Shown one piece after another: positions 35,191-54,806 of a DNA stretch of 64,000 nucleotides. The stretch lies in contig JAYMGJ010000120.1 of the NCBI GenBank assembly GCA_037178675.1, forward strand, positions 62,001-126,000. The letters run 5' to 3'. Numbering within the stretch: the first letter of the stretch is position 1; every line of letters begins with the position of its first letter. The DNA comes from Scleroderma bovista (Eukaryota; Basidiomycota; Agaricomycetes; Boletales; Sclerodermataceae). The notes below the pieces were generated by a model. That model was not told the origin of the DNA. It did no database searches and saw nothing but the letters and a program-made list of their open reading frames with translations. The position numbers and the translations under genes were made by a program.

Positions 35191-36283
35191 TGATAGTAAT
35201 GATATGATTCAGCCGGTTGTAAGACTAGTAGTACCATTTGAAATGAAAGATTGTCACTGTTTGATTAGCACGTCATCCAGCCTAAAAGCTATGCATTCGC
35301 CATTGTGATTCAGTATCAATACAGGCATGGGTGATGAGCACTCGTGAATCTCGTCATGACAACAATCTTGGGAAACTCGAGCAACTACGATCGTTGCGCA
35401 TCATTGACAGAAAGATGGGACTGATGTAGCGGAAATATCAGAATTACATATGGCTTCCAAACTTGCACCGTGTAGTGATTACAGAGGGATGAAAATCATA
35501 ATTTTGCTTGTTTCCTAGCTACATCTACAAGACAGTCATTCCAATGAATGGCCATGTTGCTGACCATGGCATACCACGAGGAACAGTGATCATCATTTCG
35601 GGAAATAATAAGTCACATCATGCATACTGGAGTCTGCAAGGTCCACATTGACGACCTTGATTGTCATGACTTAGTATATTTGTTGGAGTACTAAATATAT
35701 GACAGCTCGTCACATCTGTAGAAAGTATATAATAGAAAATCGGGAAGATACTACTGCTCGGGAATTTACCATCAGATGGCATTGTGACTAATGCATCTTT
35801 ATGAGAGAATACCTAACATAGACCTACCATGATATTCTAATATCGGACACGTCCTAAACACGCCTTGCATGATTCCAATTACAGTTATTCGAGACGATTA
35901 TAAGGGGTATATAAACCTATGTCACAAACTTGTTAAACCTGTGGTGTGGATGGCAAAGACTAGGTCGATGAATTTCCTTTTTCGTGATTGTCTGGTAGAA
36001 TGCAACTGACACTGTCAATTTGGGTAGGTCACCATATTGTGACAGCTCGATTGGACTGGCTGGCCTAGTAGGGGCTGGATCTGAGATTAGAAGGCATGAT
36101 AATGGCCTCCAATGGAGAAAAGCAGTGTGCTGTGTACTTCGAGTGGTCAATTTCAAAACATTTATCAAAGGTATGGTATTTGCAAAACTACCAATGAGCA
36201 GTCTGTTCCACTCCATTTGGAAGAACACACTGTAAGCCGAGCCCATGCACCTGGGTAGGCCGTGTTATACGGTCAGCGGACGA
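35191..36283. other. Left flank of the KDZ element
   Basis: Mostly without recognisable features. The stretch 36148-36236 closely matches 57269-57372 near the right flank region (ATTTCAAAACATTTATC, AGGTATGGTATTTGCAAAAC, GCAGTCTGTTCCACTCCATT). The similarity stops abruptly at CTGTAAG, 30-50 bp before the inverted terminal repeat. Confidence 0.6.
36260..36266. repeat. Candidate target-site duplication, left
   Basis: CCGTGTT lies just outside the left inverted repeat and recurs at 54800-54806 just outside the right one, in the same orientation. Seven matching bases are suggestive but not conclusive. Confidence 0.4.
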
Positions 36284-36303
36284 TGACAATCGGCCGTGCT
36301 ACA
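36284..36303 (+). repeat. Left terminal inverted repeat core
   Basis: TGACAATCGGCCGTGCTACA is identical to the reverse complement of 54769-54788. Outwards a weaker match continues (CGGACGA against CGGACAGACGAAGC). Confidence 0.88.
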
Positions 36304-36370
36304 CGGGCTGGCGGAAGTGAGGCTTATGACTAGAGCTTTGCCGTATCACAGGGGTCAGCCCCCGACAGCA

Positions 36371-36387
36371 TTGTCACCAAGTGACAA
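36371..36387. repeat. Subterminal palindrome
   Basis: TTGTCACCAAGTGACAA is a perfect hairpin with 7-bp arms and a 3-nt loop. The half-site TTGTCACCAAGT recurs in inverted orientation at 54655-54666 near the right end, a similar distance from the terminus (about 90 and 120 bp). It is a candidate transposase-binding site. Confidence 0.6.
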
Positions 36388-36589
36388 CGGTGGGCCCATG
36401 GCTCTGTTGTCATCACGGGGTAGGGTGAAAGTCTTAAGCCGGACAAATGGGTGTCGTCATGAAAATACTCGGGCTGAGAGGAGTAGCATACCAATAGAAT
36501 AAGTGAGCCAGTACACAATGGAGGCAGTGGGGTGAAATCTGACGGCAGCAATAACACCATAGTGAGCCGGTCAATCAGCATTGCGGCAT

Positions 36590-36725
36590 GGTCAACAGTG
36601 CGGCAAAGTCAACACTCCGGCATGTTCAACGAGATGATGTGCCGCTGATATGCAGTGCCGCTGATATGTGGTGCCGCTGATATGTGGTGCCGACGATATG
36701 TGGTGCCGGGTGTTATGTGTCGGCC
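36590..36725. repeat. Left subterminal TGCCG-type repeats
   Basis: Short units such as CGGCAAAGTCAACACTC and GTGCCGCTGATATGTG recur about every 17-19 bp, turning from CGGCA to TGCCG orientation in the middle. They resemble the arrays at 40.5-41.5, 50.1-50.4 and 53.5-53.9 kb. Confidence 0.75.
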
Positions 36726-36816
36726 GCATCTATTGCTGCATCAATTTAGTGCCGACGGTTCCTCGTGCCGGATCTTGGCCTAACGGTAGTTACTTAACAC
36801 TATATGCACGGCGATA

Positions 36817-37375
36817 CATCTATATAGAGGACATAGTATCTAGGGCCTAATGGGTATACAGGGAGATCAACTTTGTGGCCCAACGCACTCAATGGGACAC
36901 CTATCCACATGCCTTCCCAACTATATAGTTGTTCCCACATTGAGGGCTTGTTTAATCCTCTGGGACACCCCATTCATGGCTTGTCACTTTAAAATGTACT
37001 TGCAAGGTTTGCCTGCATAGCTAGATAACACCTCTGCTAGGGCCTGCCCAATGCTATGGGATACCATGGCCATTGCCTGTCAGACTGAGCTGGGCGCACT
37101 GACTATAAATGACGCTGTCTCCAGGGCTTGCCCAGAGTTATGGGACACCACACCTGTGGCTAGCACCCCTTAAATGTACAGTCTCTGCACAGCCCATTGG
37201 AATGCAAGGGACAATAGTTCCATGGCCCTTTGGTAAGAAAGGGACTCTGTTGTTACAGCCTGATCAAAGCCCGAAACACACTATTCCTCTGGCCTGCCAA
37301 CAGAAATGGCAAACCATATTTAGGGCCTGATGCAAAGCACGGGACACTGGCACTGCAGCCCTCCTACTCACTCCT
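36817..37375 (+). repeat. Long direct repeat inside the KDZ element, left copy
   Basis: It matches 53937-54458 in the same orientation with moderate divergence. Shared blocks include GAGGGCTTG, CTCTGGGACACC, CCTGTCACTTTGAAGTGTAC-like sequence, GTAGATAACACC-like sequence, CAGCCCATTGGAA and GGGACACTGG. Copies in the same orientation are unusual inside an element with inverted ends. Confidence 0.75.
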
Positions 37376-38032
37376 ATTTGTTGGGCTCTATAATAGAATA
37401 GAGAACACTATATCCAGGGCCTCCTGCTCTTATAGATGATACGGCACCTGGGGCTGTTATGTAATCATGGGACACCATCATATGGGGCTTGACACATTGT
37501 GTGACACCACTTTAGCGGCGTGCCTTGGGAACTGCAGGAGGCGGGGCCTACTCTGCTACTTCTAGCCCCTTGGCCGCAATTCCATGGCTACCCTGCTGCT
37601 TTGGCCGCCATGCTGCTAACAGTCCTTCGGCAGCAGCGGCTATCCCTGGTTCTCTGGCCGCATTGCTGTGGCATACCTTTCTTTTGCCGTGATACCGCGG
37701 CTGTACTTGTCATAGTGGAGGCCACCACTGCCGCCCGGCCATGATTGGTTACAGCCATCACAGCCACAAACTTGACGACCGGCATAAGGTATCAACTTGC
37801 AGCACCCATTGTATTGGAAGATGCGGACGACACCTCCACCCAGACATGTGCTATTCCCATTCATGCCGATGTGTTCCCTGTGTGATTTCTGCCTCATTGT
37901 TAACCTGGCCGGGTGTTGCAGCCGCAGCTCAGACTTTGGCCGGCAACATTATATCACATGTGTCGCTTTGGCCGATATTTGATTAACCAATTATTGTTGT
38001 GATGAACATATATGTAGGTATTCATACAATGT
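37376..38032. other. Non-coding part of the KDZ element
   Basis: Rich in GCCGC and GGCCGC words. No gene could be supported. The frames present on both strands are motif-free. Confidence 0.45.
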
Positions 38033-38817
38033 TTACCTACCACCCAAAGACTCCTCCCATTTCTGCCTCAATGCATTTGGTGCACGGGTTAGCATCTCAA
38101 TGTCCTCCATCCTTTTTGCACAATGCTGCATCACCTCTATATGATATTTGAGGGCATTGTCCGAGCTCCGCAACATATTGTCGCAGAAGTACCGTGCATT
38201 TGACAAGGCCTCGTCGGAGGTATACCCAACGGTGAGTAGAATGGTGACCTTTCTATCAGCAACCTTGGAAAAGCTTTAGTATCTAACACAACACGAATAA
38301 GGGAGCATACCAGGTCCGGCGGAAAGAATGCCTCTGCCTCCGATACCATGTCCCGCAGCAGCCGCATGCTGTACCCTGCTGTACATGGGCCGTGGCCATT
38401 TACCCACCACGAGTTTGCCACTTGAAGCGTACTTGGAACCTGGACTTCGGCGGCCTTCGCATGATAGACGTTCAACTGCCGCATTGCCGCATACAGTCTT
38501 GCCGGCGGCAGATCTTCTAGTACGACCATTCTGTGCACCCTGCTCGCCATCATTGGCAATATCATCTTCGCACCCATAGCCTGGCATGCGGCAAGCACAC
38601 GTTCTAAATTTGCCTGGGGGCTCATGAGTGTGTTAATCAAATGTAATCATTCTCCACTTACCACTTCCGTTTGTACGTTTGCATACCATTCAGCTGTGGC
38701 CAGCATCCCCTCAGGCTGTTGTTGAACCGCGTGCACCATCCGTCGAAAGCGGACTCCAACGTATTGCAATACCATGGACAGTTTGCAGGTTTCACGCAGT
38801 TCGGATGTGGTATTCAT
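38033..38817 (-). CDS. KDZ-element gene of unknown function
   Basis: Four exons or so join in frame from 38817: MNTTSELRETCKLSMVLQYV, RRMVHAVQQQPEGMLATAEW, ANLERVLAACQAMGAKMILP, LPPARLYAAMRQLNVYHAKA, VANSWWVNGHGPCTAGYSMR, VSEAEAFFPPDL, then ILLTVGYTSDEALSNARYF and HCAKRMEDIEMLTRAPN, ending EESLGGR. It is predicted to be helical and about 200 residues long. I recognise no family. It lies between the left subterminal repeats and the TET/JBP gene, divergent from the latter with a spacer of about 275 bp, so the two could be co-regulated. The composition (many GCCGGC words) matches the rest of the element, which suggests a resident rather than a passenger gene. Confidence 0.62.
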
Positions 38818-39092
38818 GATTGATGGTGTGATGGCCGATTCGCCCTAAGCCTTATAACATTCAGGTAATCAATGTTCTCACGGTCCACATGTCACCTGAT
38901 GCATAATTACCACATTGTGCAACCGGGCATGTGTTGTTTCGCACCGGCCAATTGCCGATCAGCCTTGTTTAGTGGATCTAGCCGAGAATGGAATGTGTTG
39001 CATTGCCGTTTGCAAACAGATGTCCGCAGGATGCCGCACATCCCCCACTAAAATTTTTACTCCCCACATTGTCAAAAGTCGTCCTGTTTCCA

Positions 39093-40357
39093 ATGGCCGG
39101 TGCAAATGCCGTGCCATCCAACTATACTTTGTCTGACATCATGGCATCATATATGCGGCGCCGCTTCCTGAATGAAGCATTCCCAGACTTAAATTCCCCC
39201 ACCCCGGAAACACTTCTGTCCCTGCCGGTGGACGCAACTGTAGCCATGAACCAAATTGTATCCACCATCACACAGGCATACCATAATCGGAGTGAGCCAA
39301 TTCTTTTATAGTTCTATTATCCCTTGCTTGATATCCGCTGAAGTTTCGTGCGGCATTGACTTGATTAGGTTGTCTGAAAGCCTCGGACCAATGCAATCCG
39401 GAACAAATGAGCAACAGGAGATTAGGGTCCTCTGTAGACATCCTTCCTCTTTGACTGGGACCCTTTCCCGGCCCACCATTATTCTGGGAGAAGGTGACAC
39501 AATTGCATTGTGGTATCTTCCCGGAGCTCTAGCTCCCTGCATCCAAGTATGGTATCATTCCACTCTCATTGTCCACTGTTGAGGCCTTTGTTTCTAGGAG
39601 CACATCGCGGCATCCATCGATTCACTTGCAGATCCACTGGAAGAGAGTATTACTAATCAATCATGGCGTACAACACACCAGTATTTCAAGGATGACGTGG
39701 ATATTTTCGGGTGCTTGGAATTCTCTCCGGCACAGCACATGCTCGGCCATTCTGTGAGTACCTTCCTTCTTTTGATGATGCACTTGTTTGATCTTCTGCT
39801 AGACCCCCAATGACATTCCGGGGGTGTCCAAGGCTTTGGCCGGTCCTACCGGCTATCAATGGAGCAAGGATATATGTCTTCCGTCGGCAATACTTTCAGG
39901 TGTTCTTTCTATTATCCATCCACCTCTATACCATGCCGGCCACCTTGCCATGCAACACTTGACTGACTGGGCGACCGGCCATGATCCCGGAATGCTGGCG
40001 GCACTTGAAAATTGGTCCACTGTCTTCACCAATATCTCGCTAATTGTCAATCGAAGTACCCCCCTCCACAGGGACCCACACTCTCGAGCAGATTGGTATG
40101 ACATGCTAGTCAGTGTCGGTAATTATGATGATTGTGCACTGCACATTCCCAGTCTTGGGATTCAGGTATTGTACAATCCTGGCACTGTCGTTGCATTTTC
40201 CGGCCGGCTCTTTCGGCACGGCGTCAACGAGGTTGACGGAGCGAGGTGCTGTTTGGCGTATTATATGAGGGATAATATTCACCATTGGTTGAGGGTGCCA
40301 CGGCCTCTTGATTGGGTGACGCCAGATAATGTCCGCAATGCACTGGTGAAGCATTGA
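39093..40357 (+). CDS. TET/JBP-family 2-oxoglutarate/Fe(II) DNA dioxygenase
   Basis: Exons 39093-39291, 39344-39546, 39598-39753 and 39803-40357 join in frame. The C-terminal domain is a double-stranded beta-helix: the iron-binding H-x-D is in STPLHRDPHSRADWYDM (His near 40067, Asp near 40073), LGIQVLYNPGTVVAFSGR forms core strands, the distal iron-binding His is in RLFRHGVNE (near 40217), and the Arg that grips 2-oxoglutarate is in GARCCLAYYMRDNIHH (near 40244). All key residues are present. The motif order matches fungal TET/JBP proteins, which oxidise 5-methylcytosine in DNA. The N-terminal third (MAGANAVPSNYTLSDIMAS) is unassigned. An in-frame ATG at 38988 is a possible earlier start. Location inside a KDZ transposon supports the family call. 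Confidence 0.86.
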
Positions 40358-40439
40358 ATAATTAGCTTCCTGATATGATTGTTTGTTGTACTAAAATGTA
40401 ATTCTGATGGTATGTAGTCCAAATTTGTTGCCGATGGGA

Positions 40440-40613
40440 TGTAGTGCCGCTCGGCGAGCCCAAAGTCGATTCTGGCATGATCACAATGATCCGGCTTGGT
40501 CAAGTGTAAACATTCAACAGGGCGGCACATTCATCATTCCGGCATAGTCAACACTTTCCGGCAGATTCAACAGTTCGGCACAATTATAATTCTGGCAGCG
40601 TGAACTAATCTAG
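40440..40613. other. Start of the TGCCG/CGGCA-rich spacer
   Basis: Contains GTGCCGCTCGGCG, GGCACATTCATCATTCCGGC and CGGCAGATTCAACAGTTCGG, single irregular units leading into the inverted repeat. Confidence 0.55.
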
Positions 40614-40810
40614 CATCAATCATGCTGTTGTGTAGTGGCATGTCAGGATGCTTCCGGCAATGTGTGCCACAATGATGATAGTGCTGAATTGTTGATTGTG
40701 CCGAACTGTTGACTGTGCCAGAATGATGAATGTGCTGAATGGTTGATTGTGCCACAGGGTTGACTCTGCCACAATGTTGAGCCAGAACGGTGATTGTGCC
40801 GGAGGGTTGA

Positions 40811-40958
40811 TTGTGCCGCAGTGTTGACTCTGCCGTAATGTTGACAGGCCAGCACAATCAATACTCCGGCACAATCAACCTTGCGGCACAGTCAACACTC
40901 CGGCAGGATCCACATCCCGGCAGTCAACAGGCCGGCACAATCAACACTCCGTCGGCAC
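40811..40958 (+). repeat. 148-bp direct duplication, first copy
   Basis: Nearly identical to 41078-41225 (one difference noticed, AGCACAATC against AGTACAATC). It starts TTGTGCCGCAGTGTTGACTC and ends ACACTCCGTCGGCAC. Near identity points to a recent event inside the array. Confidence 0.92.
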
Positions 40959-41077
40959 AATCAACCCTTCGGCACCATCATTAGTCTGGCCCAGTCAACA
41001 CTCCGGCACCATTACCAGTCCGGCACAGTCATCATTCCAGCACAGTCCTACCTCAGAGCGTGCTCGACCTGGACAGC

Positions 41078-41225
41078 TTGTGCCGCAGTGTTGACTCTGC
41101 CGTAATGTTGACAGGCCAGTACAATCAATACTCCGGCACAATCAACCTTGCGGCACAGTCAACACTCCGGCAGGATCCACATCCCGGCAGTCAACAGGCC
41201 GGCACAATCAACACTCCGTCGGCAC
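41078..41225 (+). repeat. 148-bp direct duplication, second copy
   Basis: See 40811-40958. The copies are 267 bp apart start to start. Confidence 0.92.
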
Positions 41226-41791
41226 CATCATTAGTCTGGCCCAGTCAACACTCCGGCACACTCAACCCTCCGGCACAGGCAACATTGCGGCCGAGCCAAC
41301 ACTGCGGCACAATCATCATTTCGGCACAATCACCATTCTGGCTCAACATTGCGGCAGAGTCAGCCCTCCGGCACAATCAACCGTTCGGCACAATCATCAT
41401 TCCGGCACAGTCAACATTCCGGCACAATCAACAATTTGGCACCATCATCATTGCGGCACACGCTGCTGGAAACATCCTGACACGCCGCTACACAACAGCA
41501 TGATTGATGCAGTGAACTATGGCACATATGTTATAGCTAGCTGTTGCACCGGCACACAATGGTTTCTAGCTGCGGTAGTTGATTGTTATCAATGCCAGCA
41601 GTCGTGGAACTACGAGGACCATGGCCGGTAGGCCCATGTTTGCACATCTTCCCTTGGCAGATTTATATTTACATATTGGCCGAAGGGTGTTCATGCATGG
41701 CATTCAATTGCTGCTGGTGCATGGCTTTGCCATTGCGGCTACCAGCGAATCTATGTGCCACTGTCCATGACCCTCCCATTCCATCATCCAT

Positions 41792-44700
41792 TCATTCCAA
41801 GGTATGCACCCCATAAATACCTTGCAGTTGCACCTTGTTTTTTCCACTAACAGCCACTTGATGATCCGTTTCAAATATGTCCTCTTTGCATACCATATAG
41901 CGGTATTTGATGCCGATGGTCAATGCCAATCATACACAACCAAGTCTACCATACATTTGACATTGCTTTGCTGCATAGCATGCTCTCCCCATCTCTCCGC
42001 TCATATTAGCCTCCTCCTTCTGATCTCTCCAAAGTGTTTCCCTATACGAAAGAAATTGTCTTGTCCACGTGGCTTCACATGTCAATAGTTTTACCTCTTC
42101 GTCCCACCTGTCTCGCAATGCTTTCGCCCTCAACCAATGCACCCGGTAAACTATACATGTCAGCTGGTGTTAACATGAGGAGCAATCATCTTACATTCAG
42201 ACATCCAATCATTGACTTCTGTATCCCGCGGCACATCCATTGTCCAAAACCAGGCCAAAGTGTCATCCCTATGACCCCTTGCATTTGGGTCGGCAATGGT
42301 TGCACTGATCTTTAGGTCTTCTTTCCTCAACATTTTGTATCGGTTCAATGTGTTGCCGCTTGCATTCAATGCTATCATTTGTTTCCGGCACCGACGATAT
42401 ATTGCCGCATGCCGCTGCACTTTCACATCGGCACTACCCACCTTCCCCCAGGCCCTCGTAGTCATATTGTATGTCCCGGCATGTCTGACATCGGTCCGGA
42501 AGATGACTGCCTTGTGTGCCAGCGAAACCCTTAGTTCATGTAGAGCATCGTTGGCCTGACCTTCCCTCAATCGTAACTCCTGATCCACCATGGTTAAAAG
42601 CCCCAACCTATCGGCTTGCTGCATCCCCAGGTACGACGGCAAGGGCAGTACCACAGCATCCGAGTAGTTGGGATCTTGTGGGTGGAATGTGTCTGAAAAT
42701 ACATCTTCACCATCACCTTCATCGATGTCCGTTGTGGAAATGAGATTATCCGAGATGTCCTCATTCCAATCTTCGCCTAGAAATTGGGAAGCTGATTCAC
42801 AGAGCCGATCAATTTGCATCTGCAGGCGGTCCTGCCGGCGGGCAATAGACAACCTTTGTGTTTCCGTTGCCCTTGCATGAATGTGGCGGACATCTATGGC
42901 CAAAATAATTTGTGATTCTTCGGCTTTCAATACCCTTGCCATCCATGTTGCTGCCCCACGCATACGACCATCCGGTCCCTGATTACTTATAATATCCATT
43001 TCGATCGACTTAGTTGTTTGAGCTGTCATTATAATACATCAAATTCGTTTGAAATCAGCCAAGCAAGTAAATACCTTTTTCCAGCTGCACCTCAAATATG
43101 TCCATTGATTTTGGATCAGTAACCCTATTCTCCAAAGCCGATTTCTCTTGCTGTGCCCAAAGCTCATGCAACTCGACCGGAACCCTTGTATCAAGCTCCG
43201 CAAATGCTCCTTCCGCGGACATCAGTGCCTCTTGAGCATTCTTCAATTTTCTTTTCAGGGCGATGGCTGTGCAATATGTCGTTGGCATACTTCACCCAAA
43301 ATCTGCAAGATATTGTGATACCACTCACGCATCCGCACCATCTTTAAGAAGTTGTTGTCATTCATTTGAAAATCAAGCAGCTCCTGTCTATGCGGCGTTG
43401 CCATTCCGCGGGCCGATGGCGAAATGATGTTAAGAGAGGACCAGAGAGTCTCCATAATTTCACCATCGACGCGGCCTACACCAGAAATGAAATTGGGAGC
43501 ATATCGGGTGAAACATTCTGCCTTGTGACCATGTACATGCCAGAGCCCAATGCTAGGTTGAATCCATAGCCCACATGGTAAGGATATAAAATTGTTTGCT
43601 TCTAGCCGGCGCTTTAGGTTTTTGCTGTATTGGCAATTGATGTCATAAAAGGTTATGACTTTTTGTTGCGGATCCATCCCATGTTGCACGGCATGTGCCA
43701 GAGCATAATCCATATTTACCTGCCTATCTTCCTGTTAGGGTGGAATGCATGCAACATGTCGGCACATACTGCTCTCCCTTCTGAAAGTCAACCATTGCAT
43801 GGGGTACAAAGCATCCATGCCGCGCACATGCACACCCGCCAATTCCAGTAGATGCCAGCTGATTTCTTTTAGCATTTGCCTGGTTTACTGCTCGATGGTT
43901 GCTACAGTCAGATTTCTGTGAATTCCATTACAATGCTGAACCGTATTGTAAACATGTGCAATCACAAACCTCGACCCGGTTCAATGTTCCGGCCAGATAA
44001 TCCTTATATTGCGGCATTGTAACCATGAATCCCATTCCGTCCATGAGCCAAACTTCATTAGCTGAATTCTTTGGCCGCATATGCTCGGCCTTGAAGTTTC
44101 CATCCATCACGATGGTCCTAGAATATTTCCACCTATATCATGCAGCTGCTCAATAAGTACAAGTAAAAATAAAACATTACTTACTCCGAGAGGTCTACAT
44201 CTTCACTGGATGGAATGTTTACTCCTGGTTGTGGGCATGCCGGACAGAACAGCACCAATTCCCCCCTCTTGGGATCAGGAGATCCTGGATGAAAACCTTG
44301 CCATTTCAACAGCTTTAACAGCCTCCACATCCTCGACACCCTGAGTAGCTCTCTGTATCTGTTCTTGGATCAGTGTTGGTGGTGTCATCGGGTCCTTAAT
44401 ATCATGCTTTGAACTCACCGGTACAAGGCCAGGAAATGCATTGGATGTGACTCGCCGAAGCTTGCTGTAATAATTCATGGCAGAGGTGCCGCACTCCACA
44501 TTATCCATAATGAAGTCATCCAATACTTGGAAGGTGAATACAGTCCTAGGTTCCTTTGTAGTTGCCGGGAAGAGTCCTGCTTTGACCAACTGCAAATGCG
44601 AAGCTCCTGCATCTGGACAGTTACAATACCTCACATCGCAAAAATGTACCCCAGATGTATGCACTACAGTTAGGCAAGACCTGTCCGTTCCTCCAGAAAG

Positions 44701-45452
44701 ATGATGTGGTCTTGGTTGGTCCTGAATATCCTCCCATTCATCCTCAACATCACCAGCAATGTCCTCACCATCCATCCCGCCATTCGGACACGGATCCCCA
44801 CCATGGCCGAGGTGTACCACCAACCCAGCCTTCTAAATGAGTTGTTGCTGTATGCCACGTAGAATTGATGACTCACCAGTCGTAACGATGATTCCTCAAA
44901 GAATGTACCGTTCCATTGGTCCACCCGGTGGAAGGGCCGCAACTTGTGTTCCTTTCTGCAACAGGAACTGCAGAGCAAGGGCCGGTGGATGCATTCGGCG
45001 CATCTGTACGTGCCATCTCCTTGACACAACATGCAGACCCTTGGGTGAGGGGGTGCCTCCATGTCCAGAAGGACCTGGAGGTACCTCTGCTTGTATGGCA
45101 ACCATGCCAATAAGTAACTGTCCTATTATGCCTTCAGGAGGACATGGCAAGTGCAGGATCGGAATAAATCACACACCTGATTCTTTGACACACCTGTTCT
45201 CTTTCGGGGTGGAAGATCATCCATGGAAATGTATGGCTGGCCATCATCTGGAAACAGTTGGGATTGTTCTAATCCTATAGATGCTGACTGGGTCGGAGTG
45301 TCATTTGAAGGAGCTTTTCCATGACGGGCCTTCTTTCGGGGCGTTGCCTTCACCATCTTATCAATAGATCCCCTCCTTGATTTGAATGCCTGCCATGTTA
45401 CATGAACCACCGGAGTAGAGCTACCAGCAGGTTGTATCTTGGACTTTGCCAT
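41792..45452 (-). CDS. KDZ (Kyakuja-Dileera-Zisupton) transposase with cysteine-rich CxC2-like domain
   Basis: The gene starts MAKSKIQPAGSSTPV. After a basic N-terminal part comes a cysteine cluster (RVCMLCQGDGTYRCAECIH, LLCSSCCRKEHKLRPFHRV), then LVVHLGHGGDPCPNG, VHFCDVRYCNCPDAGASHL, GLFPATTKEPRTVFTFQVLD and LVLFCPACPQPGVNIPS. Catalytic-core motifs are VMDGNFKAEHMRPKN (Asp near 44100), ITFYDINCQYSKNLKRRL (Asp near 43644), GLWHVHGHKAECFTRYAPNF and GRVDGEIMETLWSSLN (Glu near 43452-43461), fitting an RNase H-like DDE enzyme. The C-terminal part has LYRVHWLRAK-type sequence (HWLRAKALRDRWDEEVKLL) and a proposed last exon ending YGVHTLE. More than ten exons. No stop interrupts the chain I could follow. 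The enzyme would cut and paste the element by its inverted ends. A start at 45497 is possible. Confidence 0.85.
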
Positions 45453-45873
45453 GAGTGGTATCTGATGAGGAAATCCCTGCACAAAGTCTTTCCACATTGT
45501 ATCTCACTGAAGCCTCATTGAAACAGCATGGACAGTGATCGGAAAGGGATCTTTGGATCTGCCGATTTGGATCTAGCTTTTGTAATATGGACTTGAAGAT
45601 CAGGCACCAATGCAAAAATCCCATATATGGTGGCCGCTACTGAATTAGATCCTAAGTTAAAGTCCGGAAATAGCTTGTTAGCTGCCGAACAACATAGCCG
45701 GCCCCAGAAGTAGCTAGCTCACCAATGGATTTTCCAAAAGAGGTCGGCGTGGAGGAATTGAACACTAATTGACATGGGAGAAACAATAGCTCGGGAATCC
45801 TTCAACAAAGTGTCCGGGACTTCTCTAGCACAGCACCACTCAAAAAAGTATCTAAGTCTACTCAACATACAGC

Positions 45874-48267
45874 ATGGCCCGCAGTCGTTCATCCAGCAGA
45901 TCTATGGAGAATCCTGATACAGAAGATGAGCAAGACCATTCTTCTGACTCGTCGGGCACAGAGGCACCACAAAATGTGGTAAAAACAAAACTCCGGGATG
46001 ATGAGGTCGAGGTCCTTGAGGAAGCCTTGGAAGACTGGAAGGCAGCTGACAGCAACCAAAGGAAAGGTATGAAGAATGCCATGAAGGCAAAAATCAAAAA
46101 TCTCCCTGCCAATAGCACACTCAAAGGACACGAATGGGAGAAGAAAAAAAAAGTGCGCCCCATTTCCATAACTTCACATGGACTACTGATGCATCAGTGA
46201 TATCAGGCAATTAAAAATTGGTTGTATAACCACAGCCGAGCCCGTGCCCGAAAGGCCCTAGTAAAGTATGGACGTAGGTGGACTGCCAGATCAGTCGTAA
46301 TGAAGTCGAAGAAAAAAGAAATCGAAGCCGAATTCGAACGGGCCGGAATTGCCCAAGGAAGCACAGGCATGATTAAAGGCTACCAAAAGGCGGTAGGATG
46401 CATCATGGGGAAGCTCACCCAGGAGGAAAGGGATGCTGCGGCAAAGCAGGCTGATGAATGGAACGAGGAGCAGCCGCCGGCAGAGGTCCAGGCCGAGTAA
46501 GTTTGACATGTTATCTCGACAATTATTCATCTGCAAACAGAATGGCCGAGACAAAAGGCCGACAATATGTCAAACAGTTTGCGCAGGAAATGTGGCGGCA
46601 GTGTGGGATGCGGGTGGTTGTGATGGCGGCATGGAAGGGCCGGAATGGTCAGCCCATGATGGGAATGTATGTCACTTCTCACTTGTGGTATTTGTATACT
46701 CACATTCACAGGCATGACTTTAATTCGGCATTGGGACAAGGGAAGACCTTTGCCGATTGGGATGACATCAAGCACCACTGGGATGCCTATGCACAGCAGG
46801 CCATAGGAGGGGAAGAACACGATGATAGCGATGAAGATGCCGGACCGACGCTCTGCCGGAAGAAAGGGCAGAAGAGGCCGCAAACTGTTTTACCAACAAT
46901 GGAAGATGGCACACCAATGATTCCGATCATCCTCGATATGCAAGCATTGGAGAGAAAGGATGTTATGAGGACCTTTGTGACATGGCATTATCGTAAGTTC
47001 TTCCTTGTAAATAGACGGAGAATTGACCCCTTGCCGCAGGCAAGGCATGCGGCAAGCCAAGTGCCAGTGTTCCTTGGGCTGCCATACATGCAAAGACCGG
47101 TATCTACATTTCATCTGTGTACCTGCCGCGGCATTGGGAGTTCAAAGAGCCGACCCGGCTCACAAATCAGGAAGTTACAAAGGTACTGGAATTCTGGCGC
47201 GATAGGCAAGTGACAGATCCGGAAGATGTACTGACATTTCACAAATGGAGAGATATGGATGGTGGATTACAAGATCCAGTATCAGATTGTGAGGACTCAG
47301 TGGCCGGAATGATAAGTGCAGCAAAGCCGCCCCTGAAAGGTTAGCTCTGAATACTTTTATCAACTTGTTTTGACTGGTTCAAAGAACCTGCGGCACGAGA
47401 TGTGGAACTCGCAAGCAGTCGGAAGAGGCGGCGCACAATTGGTATGGATCTTTCAACCATGTTATGCAACCATTGACATGCATAAAAGAAGAGGCCCCAG
47501 AGGAGAGGGAGTCCAGTGCAACAAACAAAAACCAATGCCGGTCAAACCAGGATGATGGTACGCCCCATCCGTATTCCAAGCATTTGATCCTCCTACATTT
47601 GGAACATCCCTGTCAGCAAGCCATACAACGCCCATTGAACAGCCTGGTCAGTTCCTTTGAATATTTTTGTTGTCAGAATATGAAGTTTATATATAGAGGA
47701 TGACTCAGATGGACATAATGCTAAGGAAAATGGTGCGTGGGGCTTGGTTTTGTTATGCCGGTGGGACCATCTTGACGAAGAGCATCAGCGGCACTGACGG
47801 CACGGCAGCCGGCCGAACCTAAACAGCAAGGTGGGTATTGGTCTCAATTACTTGGAAATGGCACGTATTCTCATATAAGAAAAAGCACATATGGATCCCG
47901 GCAACGTCAATGCTAATGGACCGATGAAGCCAAAGCCCCGGGTTAAAAAGAACACAGCCGATGCGCCGGTGGAATGTAAGTTTGCCTATTTCAATATCCA
48001 TTTGAGCAATTCCGACAAATGATAGTTGGTGAATTAACTATGCATTCCATTGGCAACACAAATGGGATGGAGGGTGGTCGATCAGGGGATGATGATGCCA
48101 CACACTCTGGAGGCAAGGGGAAGCGGGCTGCCAGCACACGCCGGATTGCCAGGGCTCAACATGTCAATGCCGTTGCCGGGCCTAGTCAACCGGAACGGCA
48201 AAGAAGGCGGCCAAAGCGGCCCGATGCCGATGTCCCTACGCCCAGCCCAAAGAGACGCCGCAAATAA
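45874..48267 (+). CDS. KDZ-element gene, large nuclear-type protein of unknown function
   Basis: The start MARSRSSSRSMENPDTEDEQ is acidic and Ser-rich. Following exons give VEVLEEALEDWKAADSNQRK, NWLYNHSRARARKALVKYG, KKKEIEAEFERAGIAQGSTG, LTQEERDAAAKQADEWNEEQ, YVKQFAQEMWRQCGMRVVV, HDFNSALGQGKTFADWDD, WDAYAQQAIGGEEHDDSDED, IYISSVYLPRHWEFKEPTRL and WYAPSVFQAFDPPTFGTSL. The last exon has basic clusters (ERQRRRPKRP, SPKRRRK) that look like nuclear localisation signals. Similar proteins recur in mushroom genomes, with no known function. It is divergent from the transposase (spacer about 420 bp), so the two may share control. Exons between 47344 and 48019 are the least certain. Confidence 0.62.
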
Positions 48268-48347
48268 TATACTTGTAGAATAATGCTATTGTCAAATCTG
48301 CCATGTCTTGTGCCGAAAGATTTTATTGCCGCACTACTGTAACAAAA

Positions 48348-49567
48348 CTACAGCTTGGAGGGATCTAATACTACCACATCCTCAGGGTGATCGGACTCAA
48401 TTATGTCACCATTCTCGCCAAGTCGGGCTGACCTAGCCAACATATCCCGCACATTTGCCAACATCGCTCTCCGGCACATTTCCGATCTCCACAACCTGGC
48501 GGTGTCGAGCAACGTGTTTGCGTAATGAATGTAGGCCGCGATCATAGGGTGATCAAGGCCGGCATCGAGTGGGAGTAGGTCGGGCAAGTTCCTAGGAGGG
48601 ACGGATGTAGCAACTTGCCTTGCAGAGGCCACTAGATGACAACTGATCAACTGATACTATGGATCAAGCCCAAGAGAGACTTACATGAAAGCGCATCACT
48701 CTGGAATGGATCCAAATGCTCATGCAATGCATTAATCCTGTCCACCATCTCAAAATATTCCACTGGATGATTGTTAAATACACATAATTCCTGCAGTAAT
48801 ACTGACTTACCATCCTCTGCATGCACGTGTTCCCGGAATCGTGCATGCGATCCAGATACAGCCTCAGGAGATGATTCTGCCTCCATTGGGGAGGTGGGAA
48901 TCCGCTGGCTTGATGCCGGGCTAGATAGCGATGCCGGGCTCGATGGCGATGCCGGGAGCGATGGCGATGCCGGGCTGGATGGTGATGCCGGGCTGGACGG
49001 TGATGCCGGGACTGAGGATGCCGGCATTGATGGGGATGACGTCCCAATACGTGGCACGTGCACTGGAGAGGGCGGGATCCATGCGGCCATCGTGGGGGAT
49101 GGCGACGGTGGCATCCATGCTTGCGGTTGGGTGCCTTGGGATGATGGCCGAACCGATGGGGTAGCTGGCATTGCTGCCGGGGGTGGCATTGATGCCTGCG
49201 ACCGAATGGTGAGGGTAGACGGCACATTGGATGAACTGGCAGCGATTGGAGGCGACGGTGGCATCCAAGCCTGGGATCTAGTCGTGGGGGTTGCTGCACG
49301 CATCTCGTGTGCTGAGGGGCCAGGGAGGTTGATCGGAGCTGATTGCGAGGGGGCCGGTAACTGATTGTTTGCCGCTGTTGCTTGTCTGTTGCTGTCCCCA
49401 GACATTGCATCGTTGTTCCTCACAGACACATTTGTTTCACCTGTGCGCATCCCGTGGCGTGGGGGAGAGGGTGGCATCCAGTCCATGCTTGATGGCAGGC
49501 GTTCATCGACAATGGATGGAGGCGGGTGCCACACTGGCAGTGCAGGAATGGCTGATAACGATGTCAT
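48348..49567 (-). CDS. KDZ-element gene, Pro/Ser-rich low-complexity protein
   Basis: The first exon starts MTSLSAIPALPVWHPPPSIV. It contains several WMPPSPP motifs and a run of about eight ASPSSP-type hexapeptides near 48900-49010, encoded by an 18-bp tandem repeat (GATGCCGGGCTGGATGGT and variants). A structured tail follows (SVLLQELCVFNNHPVEYFEM, VDRINALHEHLDPFQSDALS), then after a GTAAGT intron VASARQVATSVPPRNLPDLL and YIHYANTLLDTARLWRSEMC, ending VVVLDPSKL. No family recognised. The disordered N-terminus with a short helical C-terminus could be a scaffold or DNA-binding accessory protein, but that is a guess. It is convergent with the gene ending at 48267, with an 80-bp gap. Confidence 0.6.
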
Positions 49568-50062
49568 GCAGATCAGCTCAGAGGAGAGAAATTACTCACT
49601 CAATTTCCGCGGACTTGCGCTATCAAATCTGACAGACTTAGGTGGCATAGCGGTAGCAAAGATGCAAGTTGACAAGATGGAATTGACGTGGAATGGAAAT
49701 CACAATTGAATGATTATATAATAATGGTTTCCATATATAGTTCATTTATCTCACCACTGGAAAGATTTGCTGATAGTGTGTTGTGCCAAAGGTATCGGCA
49801 AGTGCCGATGTTATACAAGTGCTGATGGTATTACAAATGTATGTCCTGCCGCTGGGGTGTGTGCCGATTGTCTACCGTATGCATGTTCCAATGGAATGCT
49901 GTGCTGATTACAGTATGTTACCTCAATCAACACCTAATGCCGCCATCCACGGCAATTATAGATACTCTTGCTATTTATGTATATCGGTAACATCGAAGAA
50001 TTACTGCAAAGGTAAATCTTGCATTTGCCGGCGAAAGATTGGGATAGTATCATGTACATAGT
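49568..50062. other. Non-coding part of the KDZ element
   Basis: Probable promoter region of the Pro/Ser-rich gene followed by scattered TGCCG words. The paired text TGCCGCCATCCACGGCAATTATAG (in two parts) recurs as a similar block at 50472-50495. Confidence 0.4.
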
Positions 50063-50405
50063 GCCAATAGTGTGCTGTGTCACAAGTGTGATGTGCCGAT
50101 AGTATGTAGTGCCGATATAGTGCCGATAGTATGTTGTGCCGTATGGTGCGATGGTATGTGTGCCGATGGTATGTTGTGCCGATGGTATGTTGTGCCGATG
50201 GTATGTTGTGCCGATGGTATGTTGTGCCGATGGTATGTTGTGCCGATGTTGCTGTGCCGATAGTGTCTTGTGCGAATGGTTTGCAAGTGCCAATGTTATG
50301 CAAGTGCTGATCACTGTTGCAGCGGCATGGATGTAATGCCGCCGGTGGTTGTGCCGATTGTATGCCGATTGTATGTGCCGATGCAGTGCCGAGTGTATGT
50401 TCTCC
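50063..50405 (+). repeat. Array of 16-bp TGCCG units
   Basis: The unit GTGCCGATGGTATGTT is repeated exactly head to tail at about 50160-50240, with degenerate units on both sides (GTGCCGATAGTATGTA, GTGCCGATTGTATGCC). It belongs to the same motif family as the other arrays of the element but in one orientation only. Confidence 0.88.
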
Positions 50406-50783
50406 CTTGTATGTTCTGCTGATTGTGTTGTGCCAGTGGATTAAAAGTATGTTGCTCCTTCCAATACTTGATGCCGCCATACATGGCAATTATAGTTACA
50501 TCTGTAGGACATATCTAGCCTGCTCTTGGTATTCATGTATATCAGTAACGTTGAAAAGTTACTCCACAGGTAAATTTGGGATGTGCCGGCGACATATTGG
50601 CAATGCATTCATGGCTGTGGTTGAGACCATTACTGGCATGTCTCTGACAGAGTTCTCAGGCTGTGTCAATGATTCACAAGGACAACTCTACATGCATAAA
50701 TATACTTTACAATGTGATGTATATGGTATACATGGAATAGGAAGCGGAAATTGTACAAAAGACGTAGGTATGATAAAAGAAAA

Positions 50784-52750
50784 TTAGTCCGTTTCCATTT
50801 GCACACCGGCATCATGCCCGGCATCGGCATCGGAACTCCCAATCTCCATATCGGATGCCGGCCCAACATCTCCATCTTCCGGCGGGCTGACCTCGATTGC
50901 CGGAATATTGCCGGTCTCTATGGTTGCGGCCACTTCATCACAAATCGCTGTCAACAACACAATCTTGTGATCAGTAGCACATGGCTTGGTAATTGACAGA
51001 CTTACCTTTTGGTGGGGCCCAGTCGTAGCTATCACCAGTTGGCTTGCTGGCACCCCTTTCATCGACCAAGCCTGGAGTTGCCACCTCCAGACTTGAGGCA
51101 TTGTTGCGCAGCGCAACCTGCATACCATGGGTGCCGGTCGGCTCGCTCGAGCCATGTCGGGACGGATTGTTGGACGATGCCATTTCTTCCAGCATTGTGG
51201 TAGGCGCTAGTGCCAACGGGCTTGGCGGACTGGGGTGAGCGCACTGCGAGACCTCGGGACATGTTGAGTCAGATGCCGGCTGTGTCGGTGCGAATGCCTG
51301 CCGCGATGCCGGACGTTGAAGGTGGGATGGTGTTGGGAACAGCTGTTCCCGCATCGCTTCAACCACCTGCCGTAAGCTGGCGACTTCTCCGAGCGCGACG
51401 GCCAATCTTGCATTCGCTTCGTCCACCTTTCGTTCCGTTTCGGCCTGCTTTTCCCTCAAACGGACAACCTCCTCCTCGAGATCTTGTACATTCGACGTAT
51501 TCGTACTGTCTCCCGGTGTTGTGGGAGGGTTCGTGCCACTGCCGGCGGCCGTTGACGATGGACTTGCCGTCCTCGATGTCTTCCCTAGCCATGCTGGAGT
51601 ATTGATCAGTACCCCATCAAAAACTGGATGGAATATCGATAGAAATAATATTAAATTGTTCGAATAATGAACGACTTACTTGGTTTCCTGGGCGGATTGG
51701 CCGCTGCTGGTGCCGGGGTCTGACGTTGGCTTTTTGCACGCTGTGACCTTCCTCGGTTGAGCGTTGAGGGCGCAGATGGTGAACGCCGACGCGGTGCAGG
51801 TTTCCTCGGTGCTTGTGAACGCGACCTTGACCTCGCTCTGACTGCCGTCATCATACTGCATGCAATCTTGCTGCAGCAACATTGCCAGCAAGCACGGCCT
51901 GGGTTCGCTGCACACCGTCGATCTCGCTGTACGCACTTGATGCAGCGATCCTTGTCATCCACCCACTCATAGCCTGCGTCTGGTGTCTGCATGTCGCGAA
52001 CGTTTGGCCTTGGTCGCTTTGGCCGTGGTTGCGATGAGGCTTCTTCATCATCACCGTCGCTGTTGATCGTTGCGACGGATTGGGCACGCTTCCTCGGCTT
52101 GCGACTGCGACTGCGGCCCCTAGGCACCTCATCATCCTCGATGGCACGGCTTCCTTCTGGCACTGCTTGTGAGTCCTCAGTTTCACTGGGCTCACCTACT
52201 TGGCCACGACTGCCGTGCACCTCTGTCTCCTTTACCCCCGATGGTCCTGCCACTGCATTGTTCCCCGACGGCTCTACCGCTCTCCTCTTTCCCTTGTCCA
52301 CCTTCTTCTGCGGCTTGCCTAGTTGGAACCAGGGATGGTCCCGGATATCGTGGTCCGTGGCGTTAACGATGTCCGGGAAGTGAGGCCACTTCCCTGTCGA
52401 CAGGATCACCTCTGGCGCCTCCATAAACTGGTCGGCAGCAACGATGATAGTCGGTATAATGAATCCTGCAGGTAACTCCTGCAGGACATTCTCGACCCGG
52501 CGCTATCATATCCTAATCAGTGAGTTGATTGATTGCAGATAAATTTGCCACGCACCACCTGGGCCCAGATAGTTGACACTGCTTCCGACCATACACCCTT
52601 CTCCCGTGTGCTTCTCAAGCCATCAATCCGGCCTTGAATTATTTCAGCGGCCTGGGCGACGACTTCTTCTGCAGTGAGGGACGTAGCCGTTGACACGTCC
52701 TCTTGAACGGATGAGGCGGAGACGAACTGAGAACCTTCTGAAGTTTCCAT
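50784..52750 (-). CDS. KDZ-element gene, cysteine-cluster and coiled-coil protein
   Basis: Exon 1 starts METSEGSQFVSASSVQEDV and contains VAQAAEIIQGRIDGLRSTRE. Exon 2 gives RRVENVLQELPAGFIIPTI, FMEAPEVILSTGKWPHFPD, then a basic, Ser/Arg-rich region (PRGRSRSRKPRKRAQS) and a cysteine cluster (CIKCVQRDRRCAANPGRAC, then WQCCCSKIACS) that resembles a zinc-binding DNA-contact module. The third part has a coiled coil (LEEEVVRLREKQAETERKVD, ARLAVALGEVASLRQVVEAM), and the last exon is acidic, ending GHDAGVQMETD. Order: helical N-terminus, basic linker, zinc cluster, coiled coil, acidic tail. This looks like a dimeric nuclear regulator, by inference. Similar C-x2-C-x6-C clusters occur in proteins of many mushroom-fungus transposons. 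No exact family named. Confidence 0.65.
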
Positions 52751-53520
52751 ATAGACTGTAAGGATGTGGAAATGGTAAAGCAGTGGTTGAGAGGAAGAAC
52801 TGGGTCCGATTGCCGTGCGGCCTGAAGGATGTTCAACGTATTATATAAGCATTTCACACCACAACATGTTTGCATTGTGGTCGCACACCAAAGTGGACTA
52901 AATCAAATATAGGTTAATAATTCAGCCACAAGTCCGACCAATCATTGTCCTGACAATTCGGCTAATGAACCACACTGCCGCATTTCATATTGCATGATGG
53001 CCGCGTTTCTATTGCTTGTGATTGGCTGTCACAGTGCATTGTCCCATCACAATAATAAGGGATCTCGGATCGGCATTATGATTTGCCTTATTTTGGAGTG
53101 TGTCTCTCGGGGAACAATCGATGCGGCATGTATTAACACAGCCGCAGCTTGAGAAAGGGATCAATGCCGCATGTCAGTCATTGCGGTACGGCCATCATTA
53201 ATTTAATGTTATCATTGCGGTACTTATTCGCACAGCCACCAGCCTGGCTGCCACCGGCCAGTATGTCAGTGGCAAATGCCGGTGTCCACAACCGTGCCGA
53301 CACTGCCACACGGCACGGTCATTCCCATATTGCCGCACATGCAAGCATGATGGCCGCACGGCTATTACTGCAGCACGTTTGTGATTCTCGGCAAGGTATT
53401 GCGGCACCTGCGCGATAGCTGCACAGCCATTACCAGTATTTATGTTGTGCCGTTCTTGTAATGCCGCAATTCTATTATGCCGATGGTAGATTGCTGATGA
53501 CATGTTGTGCCGCTGCTGTC
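52751..53520. other. Non-coding part of the KDZ element
   Basis: Upstream region of the cysteine-cluster gene followed by scattered TGCCGCA and TGCGGCA words about every 30-60 bp (53.0-53.5 kb). No gene supported. Confidence 0.45.
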
Positions 53521-53537
53521 GTCGGTTCAAATCCGAC
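53521..53537 (+). other. tRNA T-arm-like hairpin
   Basis: GTCGGTTCAAATCCGAC forms a 5-bp stem with a 7-nt TTCAAAT loop, the form of a tRNA T-arm with a B-box-like core. It is followed by ATTGCCC, and GCAAT at 53466-53470 could pair with ATTGC as part of an acceptor stem. The 50 nt between do not give convincing D and anticodon arms, so I do not call a tRNA gene. It may be a tRNA-derived remnant or chance. Confidence 0.35.
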
Positions 53538-53552
53538 ATTGCCCGAAAAACA

Positions 53553-53870
53553 ATTCTGCCGACAGTCGTGTTCTGCCGACAGCCTTGTTCTGCCGACAAC
53601 CTTGTTCTGCCGACAGTGTGTTCTGCCGACAGCCTTGTTCTGCCGCCAGCGTTGTTCTGCCGACAACCTTGTTCTGCCGACAGTGTGTTCTGCCGACAGC
53701 CTTGTTCTGCCGACAGTGTGTTCTGCCGACAGCCTTGTTCTGCCGACAGTGTGTTCTGCCGACAGTGTGTTCTGCCGACAGCCTTGTTCTGCCGACAGCA
53801 TTGTTCTGCCGACAACATGTTCTGCTGACAGCCTTGTTCTGCCGACAGTGTGTTCTGCCAATGCCATGTA
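53553..53870 (+). repeat. Minisatellite of 16-17 bp TTCTGCCGACA units
   Basis: About 18 head-to-tail units: TTCTGCCGACAGCCTTG (17 bp) alternates irregularly with TTCTGCCGACAGTGTG (16 bp). The alternation of unit lengths shifts the reading frame, so it is not coding. It lies near the right end of the KDZ element. Confidence 0.92.
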
Positions 53871-53936
53871 GTGCCGATTGTGTCGTGCCACACCTGGCTT
53901 ACCGCTACTTTAGAGAAGACCAGATGCCCGGCCCTA

Positions 53937-54458
53937 CATTTATACAAGGGATATAGTTCTAAGGGCCTGCTGTGTATATTGGGAGGCCAAACATTATGGC
54001 CGATCATACTGAAGGGGAAGCATATCAGCTGGCCTTCCCATCTAGCTAGGTGTCCCCAGAAGGAGGGCTTGCTTAATGCTCTGGGACACCGCATTCATAG
54101 CCTGTCACTTTGAAGTGTACTGCAAGGCCCTCCCATATAGGTAGATAACACCTTTCTGAGGGCCCACCTAATGCTATGGGACATTGTACCTATTGTTGCC
54201 ATGTGCCCTGCACATAATAGATGAAACTGGCTCCAGGGCCTACTCATAGTCATGGGACACCAATCCCATGGCTGGGTATTCTTAAAGGTACACCATGCAT
54301 GCAGCCCATTGGAAAGCACGGGATGCTGTTTCTTTGGCTGGCCCTGCAACAAGAAAGGGACACCAAAGGTACAGCCCAATGCAAAGCACAGGACACCAAT
54401 ACCACAGCCAAATGCAAAGCATGGGACACTGGTACAGAGGCCCTTCTATTGACTCCCG
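53937..54458 (+). repeat. Long direct repeat inside the KDZ element, right copy
   Basis: Partner of 36817-37375 in the same orientation. See that entry for shared blocks. After it both sides continue with GCCGCA-rich sequence. Confidence 0.75.
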
Positions 54459-54768
54459 TCCACAGGCTAGCCGCATTGCAGCACTTACTACCGTCCTTTT
54501 GCCGAAATGCTGCGGCAAGCCCCCTGCAATCCTCGGCCTGAATCTGCGGCATATAGTCCTCTGGCCGCATGCCGCAGCTCCCTTGCCGCATTAGGTCCTA
54601 TTGCCACAGGCCATATCCTGATCTAGTGTACTAGTGTGTCAGCCCACCAATATTACTTGGTGACAACCTTTCCATGAGCCACCAATATGGCATGGTGAAA
54701 CACCTTACCATTAGCCCACTCGTATGACATGGGGATGCACCATGGCTGGGCCCTATCTCAGCTGGTCA

Positions 54769-54788
54769 TGTAGCACGGCCGATTGTCA
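54769..54788 (-). repeat. Right terminal inverted repeat core
   Basis: The reverse complement is TGACAATCGGCCGTGCTACA, identical over 20 bp to 36284-36303. Confidence 0.88.
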
Positions 54789-54799
54789 GCTTCGTCTGT

Positions 54800-54806
54800 C
54801 CGTGTT
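54800..54806. repeat. Candidate target-site duplication, right
   Basis: CCGTGTT, matching 36260-36266 in the same orientation. The distances from the inverted-repeat cores (17 bp left, 11 bp right) differ, which weakens the case. Confidence 0.4.

What the first reader, a model, noticed from the sequence alone, without database searches (positions are those of the whole stretch)
36284..54788. Apparently complete 18.5-kb KDZ transposon that carries its own TET/JBP demethylation-type enzyme and four unknown genes
The sequence shows matching inverted ends, an uninterrupted KDZ transposase with DDE-type motifs and a TET/JBP dioxygenase with all iron and 2-oxoglutarate ligands. Four further genes have open spliced frames, and structured repeat arrays lie between the genes. 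That TET/JBP genes ride on KDZ elements in mushroom fungi is established. A single intact unit with defined ends, full cargo and repeat architecture lets the system be read as one machine. I infer that the dioxygenase counters cytosine methylation of the element, keeping transposase genes active or ends competent.
Basis: partly seen in the sequence, partly recalled or inferred. Interest (0 to 1): 0.92.

Follow-up and report, generated by a model that had tools for sequence, protein, structure and literature searches.

The report
Mushroom jumping gene carrying demethylation enzyme
This is one copy of a large, multi-copy fungal jumping gene of a known kind that carries a DNA-demethylation-type enzyme and several other genes of its own; that much is established biology, but its conserved gene set and its arrays of CGG-containing repeats suggest a testable way it could aim that enzyme at itself.

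Summary
Copies put the borders at 36239 and 54834; the 20-bp inverted repeats lie 45-46 bp inside. The genome (51.8 Mb) holds 135 left and 105 right ends. All 14 listed end pairs spaced 18.2-20.6 kb contain TET, gene D and gene F on the expected strands; most short pairs (3.3-7.5 kb) have none. Three other copies show a 7-bp target-site duplication; the window copy does not. It is a KDZ DNA transposon with a CcTET-like dioxygenase, most like the Kyakuja lineage described in 2025. TET is undisrupted in 9 of 9 copies read, transposase in 5. A, TET, transposase and D recur in two sister loci under strong purifying selection; distant E homologues lie near other KDZ cores. D resembles HMG and GTF2I/NRF1 DNA-binding folds (weak matches); F has Zn2Cys6-type cysteine spacing. 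CpG C-to-T scars suggest the copies are methylated, but no segment is spared and a Gypsy family is scarred too, so anti-silencing stays an inference. New here: family-specific CGG-cored arrays beside two candidate DNA-binding genes, suggesting self-targeting as in plant VANDAL/VANC.

The parts
36239..54834 (+). whole element by copy comparison (18,596 bp)
   Evidence: shared/unshared border in copies at other sites; 135 left and 105 right end matches
36239..36255 (+). left terminus GAGCCCATGCACCTGGG; shares ATGCACCTG with the reverse complement of the right terminus
54819..54834 (+). right terminus GCAGGTGCATTATGTG
54769..54788 (-). right copy of the 20-bp sub-terminal inverted repeat
36744..37211 (+). 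sub-terminal direct repeat, left copy (71% over 473 columns)
53866..54323 (+). sub-terminal direct repeat, right copy
36560..36720 (.). array 1, CGG-cored units of 16-17 bp
38033..38817 (-). gene A, 211 aa, exons 38662-38817, 38311-38613, 38033-38209; no Pfam family; homologues beside TET in two sister loci
39093..40357 (+). TET/JBP dioxygenase, 370 aa, exons 39093-39291, 39344-39546, 39598-39753, 39803-40357; H275, D277, H325, R334, D286
40390..41470 (.). array 2, CGGCACAATCAACATTC-type 17-bp units; 231-bp inverted arms at 40613-40843 and 41280-41510
41930..45452 (-). KDZ transposase with CxC2 cysteine cluster, 959 aa, 11 modelled exons
45874..48283 (+). gene D, 600 aa in my model, 12 modelled exons (C-terminal exons uncertain); homologues' models resemble HMG and GTF2I/NRF1 folds
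48348..49648 (-). gene E, 383 aa, Pro/Ser-rich with a conserved C-terminus
49791..50420 (.). array 3, TGTGCCGATGGTATGT 16-bp units
50784..52750 (-). gene F, 599 aa, exons 52556-52750, 51680-52502, 51006-51623, 50784-50947; cysteines C252-x2-C-x6-C-x7-C-x2-C-x6-C280, then a stretch with weak matches to coiled-coil families
53554..53859 (.). array 4, TTCTGCCGACAGCCTTG 17-bp units

Best explanation
A TET-bearing KDZ (Kyakuja-like) DNA transposon. Shown: ends fixed by copies, 7-bp duplications at some copies, recurrent gene content, long-term purifying selection on A, TET, transposase and D. Inferred: the transposase cuts and pastes the element (and short derivatives sharing its ends); TET oxidises 5-methylcytosine laid on the element by the host so that its genes can be expressed in a short window after insertion or in the germ line; D and F are DNA-binding partners that read the CGG-cored arrays and bring transcription, TET or transposase to the element's own DNA. 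In the long run each copy is still methylated and decays by CpG mutation.
For: KDZ/CxC2/TET domains; CcTET relation; ends and copies; 7-bp duplication in C216, C375 and short C47; all 14 listed pairs of 18.2-20.6 kb contain TET, D and F hits on the expected strands, and 27 of 65 close TET places have D and F on the expected side and distance; TET undisrupted in 9 of 9 copies; A, TET, transposase and D homologues together in two sister loci with pN 0.22-0.46 and pS 0.73-0.90; E homologues 5.6-6.9 kb from a KDZ core on the same strand at 9 of 12 listed distant hits; arrays; CpG decay footprint.
Against: No methylation, expression or binding data. No spared segment in the CpG footprint; a Gypsy family is scarred too, and less so by the non-CpG measure. 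Within-family selection is weak: ratios 0.62 (TET), 0.66 (transposase), 0.79 (D), 0.75 (F), p 0.026-0.044 uncorrected; A (0.85) and E (0.76) not significant. Window copy lacks a target-site duplication. CGGC enrichment also sits in exons, which binding arrays do not predict.
Confidence: 0.6

Rival explanations
1. The TET acts on the whole genome without aim, or its oxidised bases are a repressive mark that damps the element; it is not an anti-silencing device of its own element.
For: Passages of PMC8889193 report similar oxidised-methylcytosine enrichment in retrotransposons and DNA transposons of Laccaria and Coprinopsis, preferential association with non-expressed genes, and suggest suppression; Kojima 2025 also speculates on untargeted action. 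Gypsy loci carry CpG scars as KDZ copies do.
Against: The TET genes sit inside this element and its sisters: of 65 close places, 46 have a listed left end 2-7 kb upstream; TET is kept under long-term selection together with the transposase.
Confidence: 0.3
2. TET protects element DNA from C-to-T mutation.
For: Suggested in print for rust fungi (Kojima 2025).
Against: Singleton CpG C>T at 432 of 1,284 CpG bases in KDZ copies, 22-fold over non-CpG, against 8.0 and 9.6-fold in Gypsy; CpG-transition/transversion ratio 65 against 84 and 34. CpG observed/expected is 0.69 in the window element, 0.87-0.88 in its flanks and 0.98-1.02 in four Gypsy loci (composition only).
Confidence: 0.07
3. The window copy is a recombinant or an assembly mis-join of two near-identical copies, so it cannot be read as one machine.
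For: No target-site duplication at 6 of 8 long copies with both ends read, the window's included; pairwise differences among copies only 0.29-4.2%; reciprocal partners not found.
Against: All nine long copies are collinear apart from indels and one rearranged stretch in C375, so gene content would be unchanged whichever halves were joined; two long copies have perfect 7-bp duplications.
Confidence: 0.4
4. The arrays are neutral minisatellite growth in CGGC-rich DNA, with no binding role.
For: GCCG/CGGC is also enriched outside arrays, 18.1/kb in exons and 16.9/kb in other intergenic DNA against 5.2/kb in flanks; array units differ between families.
Against: CGGCA/TGCCG is the top 5-mer of intergenic DNA (130 in 7,351 bases, 11.7-fold over flanks); four arrays with different units keep the core mostly at 16-17 bp steps, and short C47 has its own 17-bp CGGC array.
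Confidence: 0.4

Closest known systems
TET+ Kyakuja transposons of Agaricomycetes (Kojima 2025, PMC12730594)
   Same: KDZ transposase, AG-type TET with the Asp (D286) and Ser/Gly positions named there, 7-bp duplication, right terminus TG; reported there from Boletales among five orders
   Different: left terminus here reads GA not CA; 20-bp sub-terminal inverted repeats although Kyakuja-1/-2_LB are said to have no TIRs; in the parts read (1-5 of 7) I saw no A, D, E, F genes or arrays described for Kyakuja; its supplement was not read
KDZ/TET association (Iyer et al. 2014 PNAS; recalled, not read here)
   Same: KDZ elements with TET and, as I recall the abstract, further proteins including a divergent HMG domain; D may be that protein
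CcTET of Coprinopsis cinerea (7vpn, 8jkk)
   Same: dioxygenase core aligned, residues 164-332 of my query to 235-407, E 6.2e-30
   Different: activity of the window protein untested; N-terminal half weakly alike
VANDAL21/VANC anti-silencing of Arabidopsis (PMC5735166, abstract and section 9)
   Same: motif-bearing tandem repeats that differ between related elements, beside element-borne genes
   Different: a plant element (MuDR type, by the Kojima text); no dioxygenase recalled for VANC; no binding or demethylation shown here

Membership tests
KDZ superfamily DNA transposon | KDZ transposase domain | tested here: met
   PF18758 E 7.8e-42, profile 5-217 of 217
KDZ superfamily DNA transposon | associated cysteine cluster (CxC1/CxC2 type) | tested here: met
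   CxC2 E 3.7e-25
KDZ superfamily DNA transposon | DNA copies with fixed ends and target-site duplication | tested here: met
   for the family: C216 GTCCCTC, C375 GCCAATC, short C47 CGGGAAG; absent at the window copy and 5 other long copies of 8
Kyakuja lineage | 7-bp duplication | tested here: met
   the same three copies
Kyakuja lineage | 5'-CA..TG-3' termini | tested here: not met
   right end TG, left end GA; candidate ends of two sister loci read CACATAATGTACCTA (pattern matches, not fixed by copies). Filed as Kyakuja-like, not as a member
Kyakuja lineage | position in the transposase tree | not tested
   no named Kyakuja, Dileera or Zisupton reference sequences were fetched
AG-type TET/JBP dioxygenase | HxD...H iron ligands, 2-oxoglutarate Arg, AG-type Asp | tested here: met
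   H275, D277, H325, R334, D286 kept in 9 of 9 copies; roles by alignment to CcTET and Kojima text; the Arg role is recalled
AG-type TET/JBP dioxygenase | oxidation of 5mC | not testable with these tools
   no assay
Zn2Cys6 protein (gene F) | six-Cys spacing C-x2-C-x6-C-x(5-12)-C-x2-C-x(6-8)-C | tested here: met
   residues 252-280, all six Cys in 9 of 9 copies; spacing rule recalled
Zn2Cys6 protein (gene F) | match to the family profile | tested here: not met
   no Pfam family for the 75-aa piece up to E 10, no PDB match up to E 10. Not filed as a member
HMG-box / GTF2I-like protein (gene D) | fold and profile match | tested here: inconclusive
VANC-type sequence-specific anti-silencing | TE protein binds its own repeats and removes methylation | not testable with these tools
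   only architecture compared

The most novel reading that the evidence does not exclude
The element is a self-addressing demethylation system: its own DNA-binding proteins (D, an HMG plus GTF2I/NRF1-like protein kept across families, and F, with Zn2Cys6 spacing, found so far only in this family, in Scleroderma citrinum and in one unnamed protein) read CGG-cored arrays of 16-17 bp period and bring the element's TET to its own DNA. Because the CGG core contains a CpG, binding could itself be methylation-sensitive, making a positive feedback loop. Sister families with different array units would carry matching readers, as VANC and its motifs co-evolve in VANDAL elements.
Probability: 0.18. Interest if true: 0.85.

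Novelty: new member of a known kind. Interest (0 to 1): 0.52.

Why it matters
TET genes on KDZ elements are known, but their role is only argued from association. This genome gives a young family with many near-identical copies, fixed ends, short derivatives and sister families, so each step can be tested: which genes are kept together for long (A, TET, transposase, D, and E by position), whether methylation hits the element, and whether arrays and DNA-binding genes change together. If the arrays address the TET, it would be a fungal counterpart of VANC that uses an enzyme, and a source of sequence-directed demethylation tools.

Tried and rejected
TET as shield against mutation: no support. 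A first Gypsy comparison gave a ratio of 4.1, but minus-strand loci had not been turned; one search replaces it. From the capped list I first thought that D was specific to this family; one search showed it in two sister loci. HMG for D was first only recalled; the P0001 model (pLDDT 58) gave no Foldseek match at E<=0.001, then VIA listed HMG boxes (its four highest rows, over residues 1-81, are unrelated proteins). D models are low confidence (58 and 49). Profile search of D against PDB: only Apolipoprotein L1, E 0.23-0.28. Context-dependent loss as the cause of the CCG-rich remaining CpGs: singleton loss by 5' base nearly flat (0.31-0.39), though in shared changes ACG is lost about twice as fast as the rest. 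Reciprocal TSD partners: none. Gene A homologues: 11 metagenome or ENA proteins, no names. F homologues: 3. GTF2I with transposons in fungi: no relevant title among the 8 of 12 papers listed. PMC2447501 held none of the words sought.

Limits of counts: D's 291 variable changes are inflated by a rearranged stretch in C375 that was kept; searches left out C375 45600-46600 and C270 40500-41100. still held a non-homologous tail of C150 past 54787; stop at 54780. 'Undisrupted' means no stop, frameshift or lost splice site; missense changes were not scored (C375's TET, for instance, has Gln beside the ligand His). Lists are capped. A first attempt at the six reading frames used wrong start coordinates for A, D and F; one search replaces it.
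Full report
What was given and what holds. The window lies at G000:C120:62001-126000 of a 51.8-Mb assembly of 850 contigs. The closest relatives of genes D and F are from Scleroderma citrinum, and D has many from Pisolithus, so I infer a fungus near Sclerodermataceae (Boletales, recalled placement); no name was given.

Borders. Copies at other sites share sequence further out. The left edge is GAGCCCATGCACCTGGG from 36239, the right edge GCAGGTGCATTATGTG to 54834; beyond these the flanks differ. The two end patterns, with up to 2 mismatches, occur 135 and 105 times in the genome and 0 times when read backwards. The element is therefore 18,596 bp. A 7-bp duplication fits two long copies (C216 GTCCCTC, C375 GCCAATC) and a short one (C47 CGGGAAG). 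It is missing at 6 of the 8 long copies whose two ends I read, the window copy among them; C150 was left out because its right end carries extra DNA. Exact patterns for the reciprocal partners of the window copy found nothing. Recombination, decay or a mis-join remain open.

Census. Of the first 100 listed left ends (of 135) and 100 right ends (of 105), 39 pair on one strand within 32 kb. All 14 pairs of 18.2-20.6 kb contain TET, D and F hits on the expected strands; two other pairs (15.6 and 26.5 kb) do as well. Of 17 pairs of 3.3-7.5 kb, 15 have none of the three and 2 have TET only; the hit lists are lower bounds. That script did not score gene order within pairs; order is seen in the nine copies aligned, and 27 of 65 close TET places have D and F on the expected side and distance. 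The short copy read in full (C47, 4.68 kb) shares 392 bp at the left end (91%) and 250 bp at the right end (90%) with the window element, and tblastn finds none of the six proteins in it.

Genes. A dynamic-programming model (short GT-AG introns, codon usage trained on the longer frames) gives A (-), TET (+), transposase (-), D (+), E (-), F (-); coordinates in 'parts'. Since the model was chosen to be open in this window, openness alone is not independent evidence; conservation across copies is. Of nine long copies, undisrupted by stop, frameshift or lost splice site: TET 9, A 8 (one of them with an in-frame 18-bp deletion), transposase 5, D 6, E 6, F 6; all six genes in 3 (window, C556, C150). 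TET is also one of the shorter genes, so 0 disruptions may be luck.

Selection. Among the copies, non-synonymous changes fall slightly short of a spectrum- and CpG-matched null: ratio 0.62 for TET (p 0.044), 0.66 transposase (0.026), 0.79 D (0.039), 0.75 F (0.030), 0.76 E (0.14), 0.85 A (0.36), uncorrected. Between families the signal is strong. Two sister KDZ loci, C127 (L050) and C441 (L051), carry A, TET, transposase and D homologues. Synonymous sites are near saturation (pS 0.73-0.90) while pN is 0.28 for TET, 0.22-0.28 for transposase, 0.34-0.38 for D and 0.40-0.46 for A. The divergent A/TET pair is inverted as a unit in L051, and the two lie in tandem in L050 (read coordinates). E homologues of 31-39% identity lie 5.6-6.9 kb from a KDZ core on the same strand at 9 of 12 listed distant hits. 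F was found only in this family, in Scleroderma citrinum and in one unnamed protein; the sister stretches that I hold end at D, and F evolves fast, so absence elsewhere is not shown.

Arrays. CGGCA/TGCCG is the most enriched 5-mer of the intergenic DNA: 130 in 7,351 bases, 11.7-fold over the window flanks; 214 in the whole element against a mean of 44 and a maximum of 58 in 50 first-order Markov draws. The arrays have different units but keep the core mostly at 16-17 bp steps. C47 has its own 17-bp array with a CGGC core, 65 copies. The two sister loci have other units: 30 bp with ACCGG in L050, 25 bp with CCGG in L051. A warning: GCCG/CGGC is also raised in exons (18.1/kb) and in intergenic DNA outside arrays (16.9/kb), against 5.2/kb in flanks and 1.6/kb in introns, so part of the signal may be composition.

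Methylation footprint. Changes private to one copy: CpG C>T at 432 of 1,284 CpG bases, non-CpG C>T at 116 of 7,718, a 22-fold difference (a looser count gives 465/1,610 and 79/7,635). No 5' base is favoured strongly, unlike the TCG pattern that Kojima cites for rusts. This fits slow deamination of methylated CpG. It runs through all 11 segments at 0.23-0.34 per CpG base. In 17 loci of one Gypsy family, CpG C>T is 94/264 against 50/1,122 (8-fold; 9.6-fold in a subset of 7), and the CpG-transition/transversion ratio is 84 (34 in the subset) against 65 for KDZ. So the element is probably methylated, and nothing shows that its TET lessens the long-term damage.

How it most likely works, and how sure. 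Shown: a mobile KDZ unit with recurrent gene content and a conserved core. From established families: a KDZ transposase moves such elements; CcTET oxidises 5mC (Kojima text). Inferred: the oxidation helps expression or end use during a brief active phase. Boldest: D and F address the enzyme to the arrays. The nearest model is VANC of VANDAL elements, whose target motifs form tandem repeats that vary between related elements (PMC5735166 abstract and section 9).

Novelty. TET+ Kyakuja, including ones from Boletales, were published in December 2025 (PMC12730594; parts 1-5 of 7 and passages read; supplements not read). So this is a new member of a known kind. I saw no print report of CGG arrays or of the A/E genes on KDZ elements in the library searches; these sought KDZ, Kyakuja, TET/JBP, HMG and GTF2I terms, not arrays as such, and were judged from listings except for the papers named. 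Most subscription papers are not held.

Noticed in passing
36239-54834; L050, L051, L029: CpGs that survive in KDZ elements are mostly preceded by C: NCG/(NCG+NTG) is 0.49 for C but 0.20 for A in the element, 0.40 and 0.39 in the left flank; the same tilt in both sister loci and weaker in Gypsy. Present loss rates by context do not explain it fully.
   Followed up: partly
window 4095-4815: 104-bp tandem repeat, 6.9 copies, 94% alike, outside the element.
   Followed up: no
window 36744-37211 and 53866-54323: Sub-terminal direct repeat of about 470 bp, 71% alike, in the same orientation near both ends.
   Followed up: no
window 40613-40843 and 41280-41510: 231-bp inverted arms, 88% complementary, inside array 2 between TET and transposase; could form a hairpin transcript.
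   Followed up: no
G000 genome-wide: 42 listed places with a TET 53-65% identical, beside 65 close ones (82% or more): several TET-bearing families seem to coexist in one genome.
   Followed up: partly
P0030 (339 aa, sources jgi and ena): A relative of F in which several Arg read Trp, Gln or His, as CpG decay would give, while all six Cys of the cluster remain.
   Followed up: no
L050 6484-7050, minus strand: The sister TET has Gln where the 2-oxoglutarate Arg is expected (GDQCC for GARCC), so that copy may be inactive.
   Followed up: no
window 6253-7227 and 28895-30906: Host-type genes beside the element: FMN-dependent dehydrogenase and a myosin motor.
   Followed up: no
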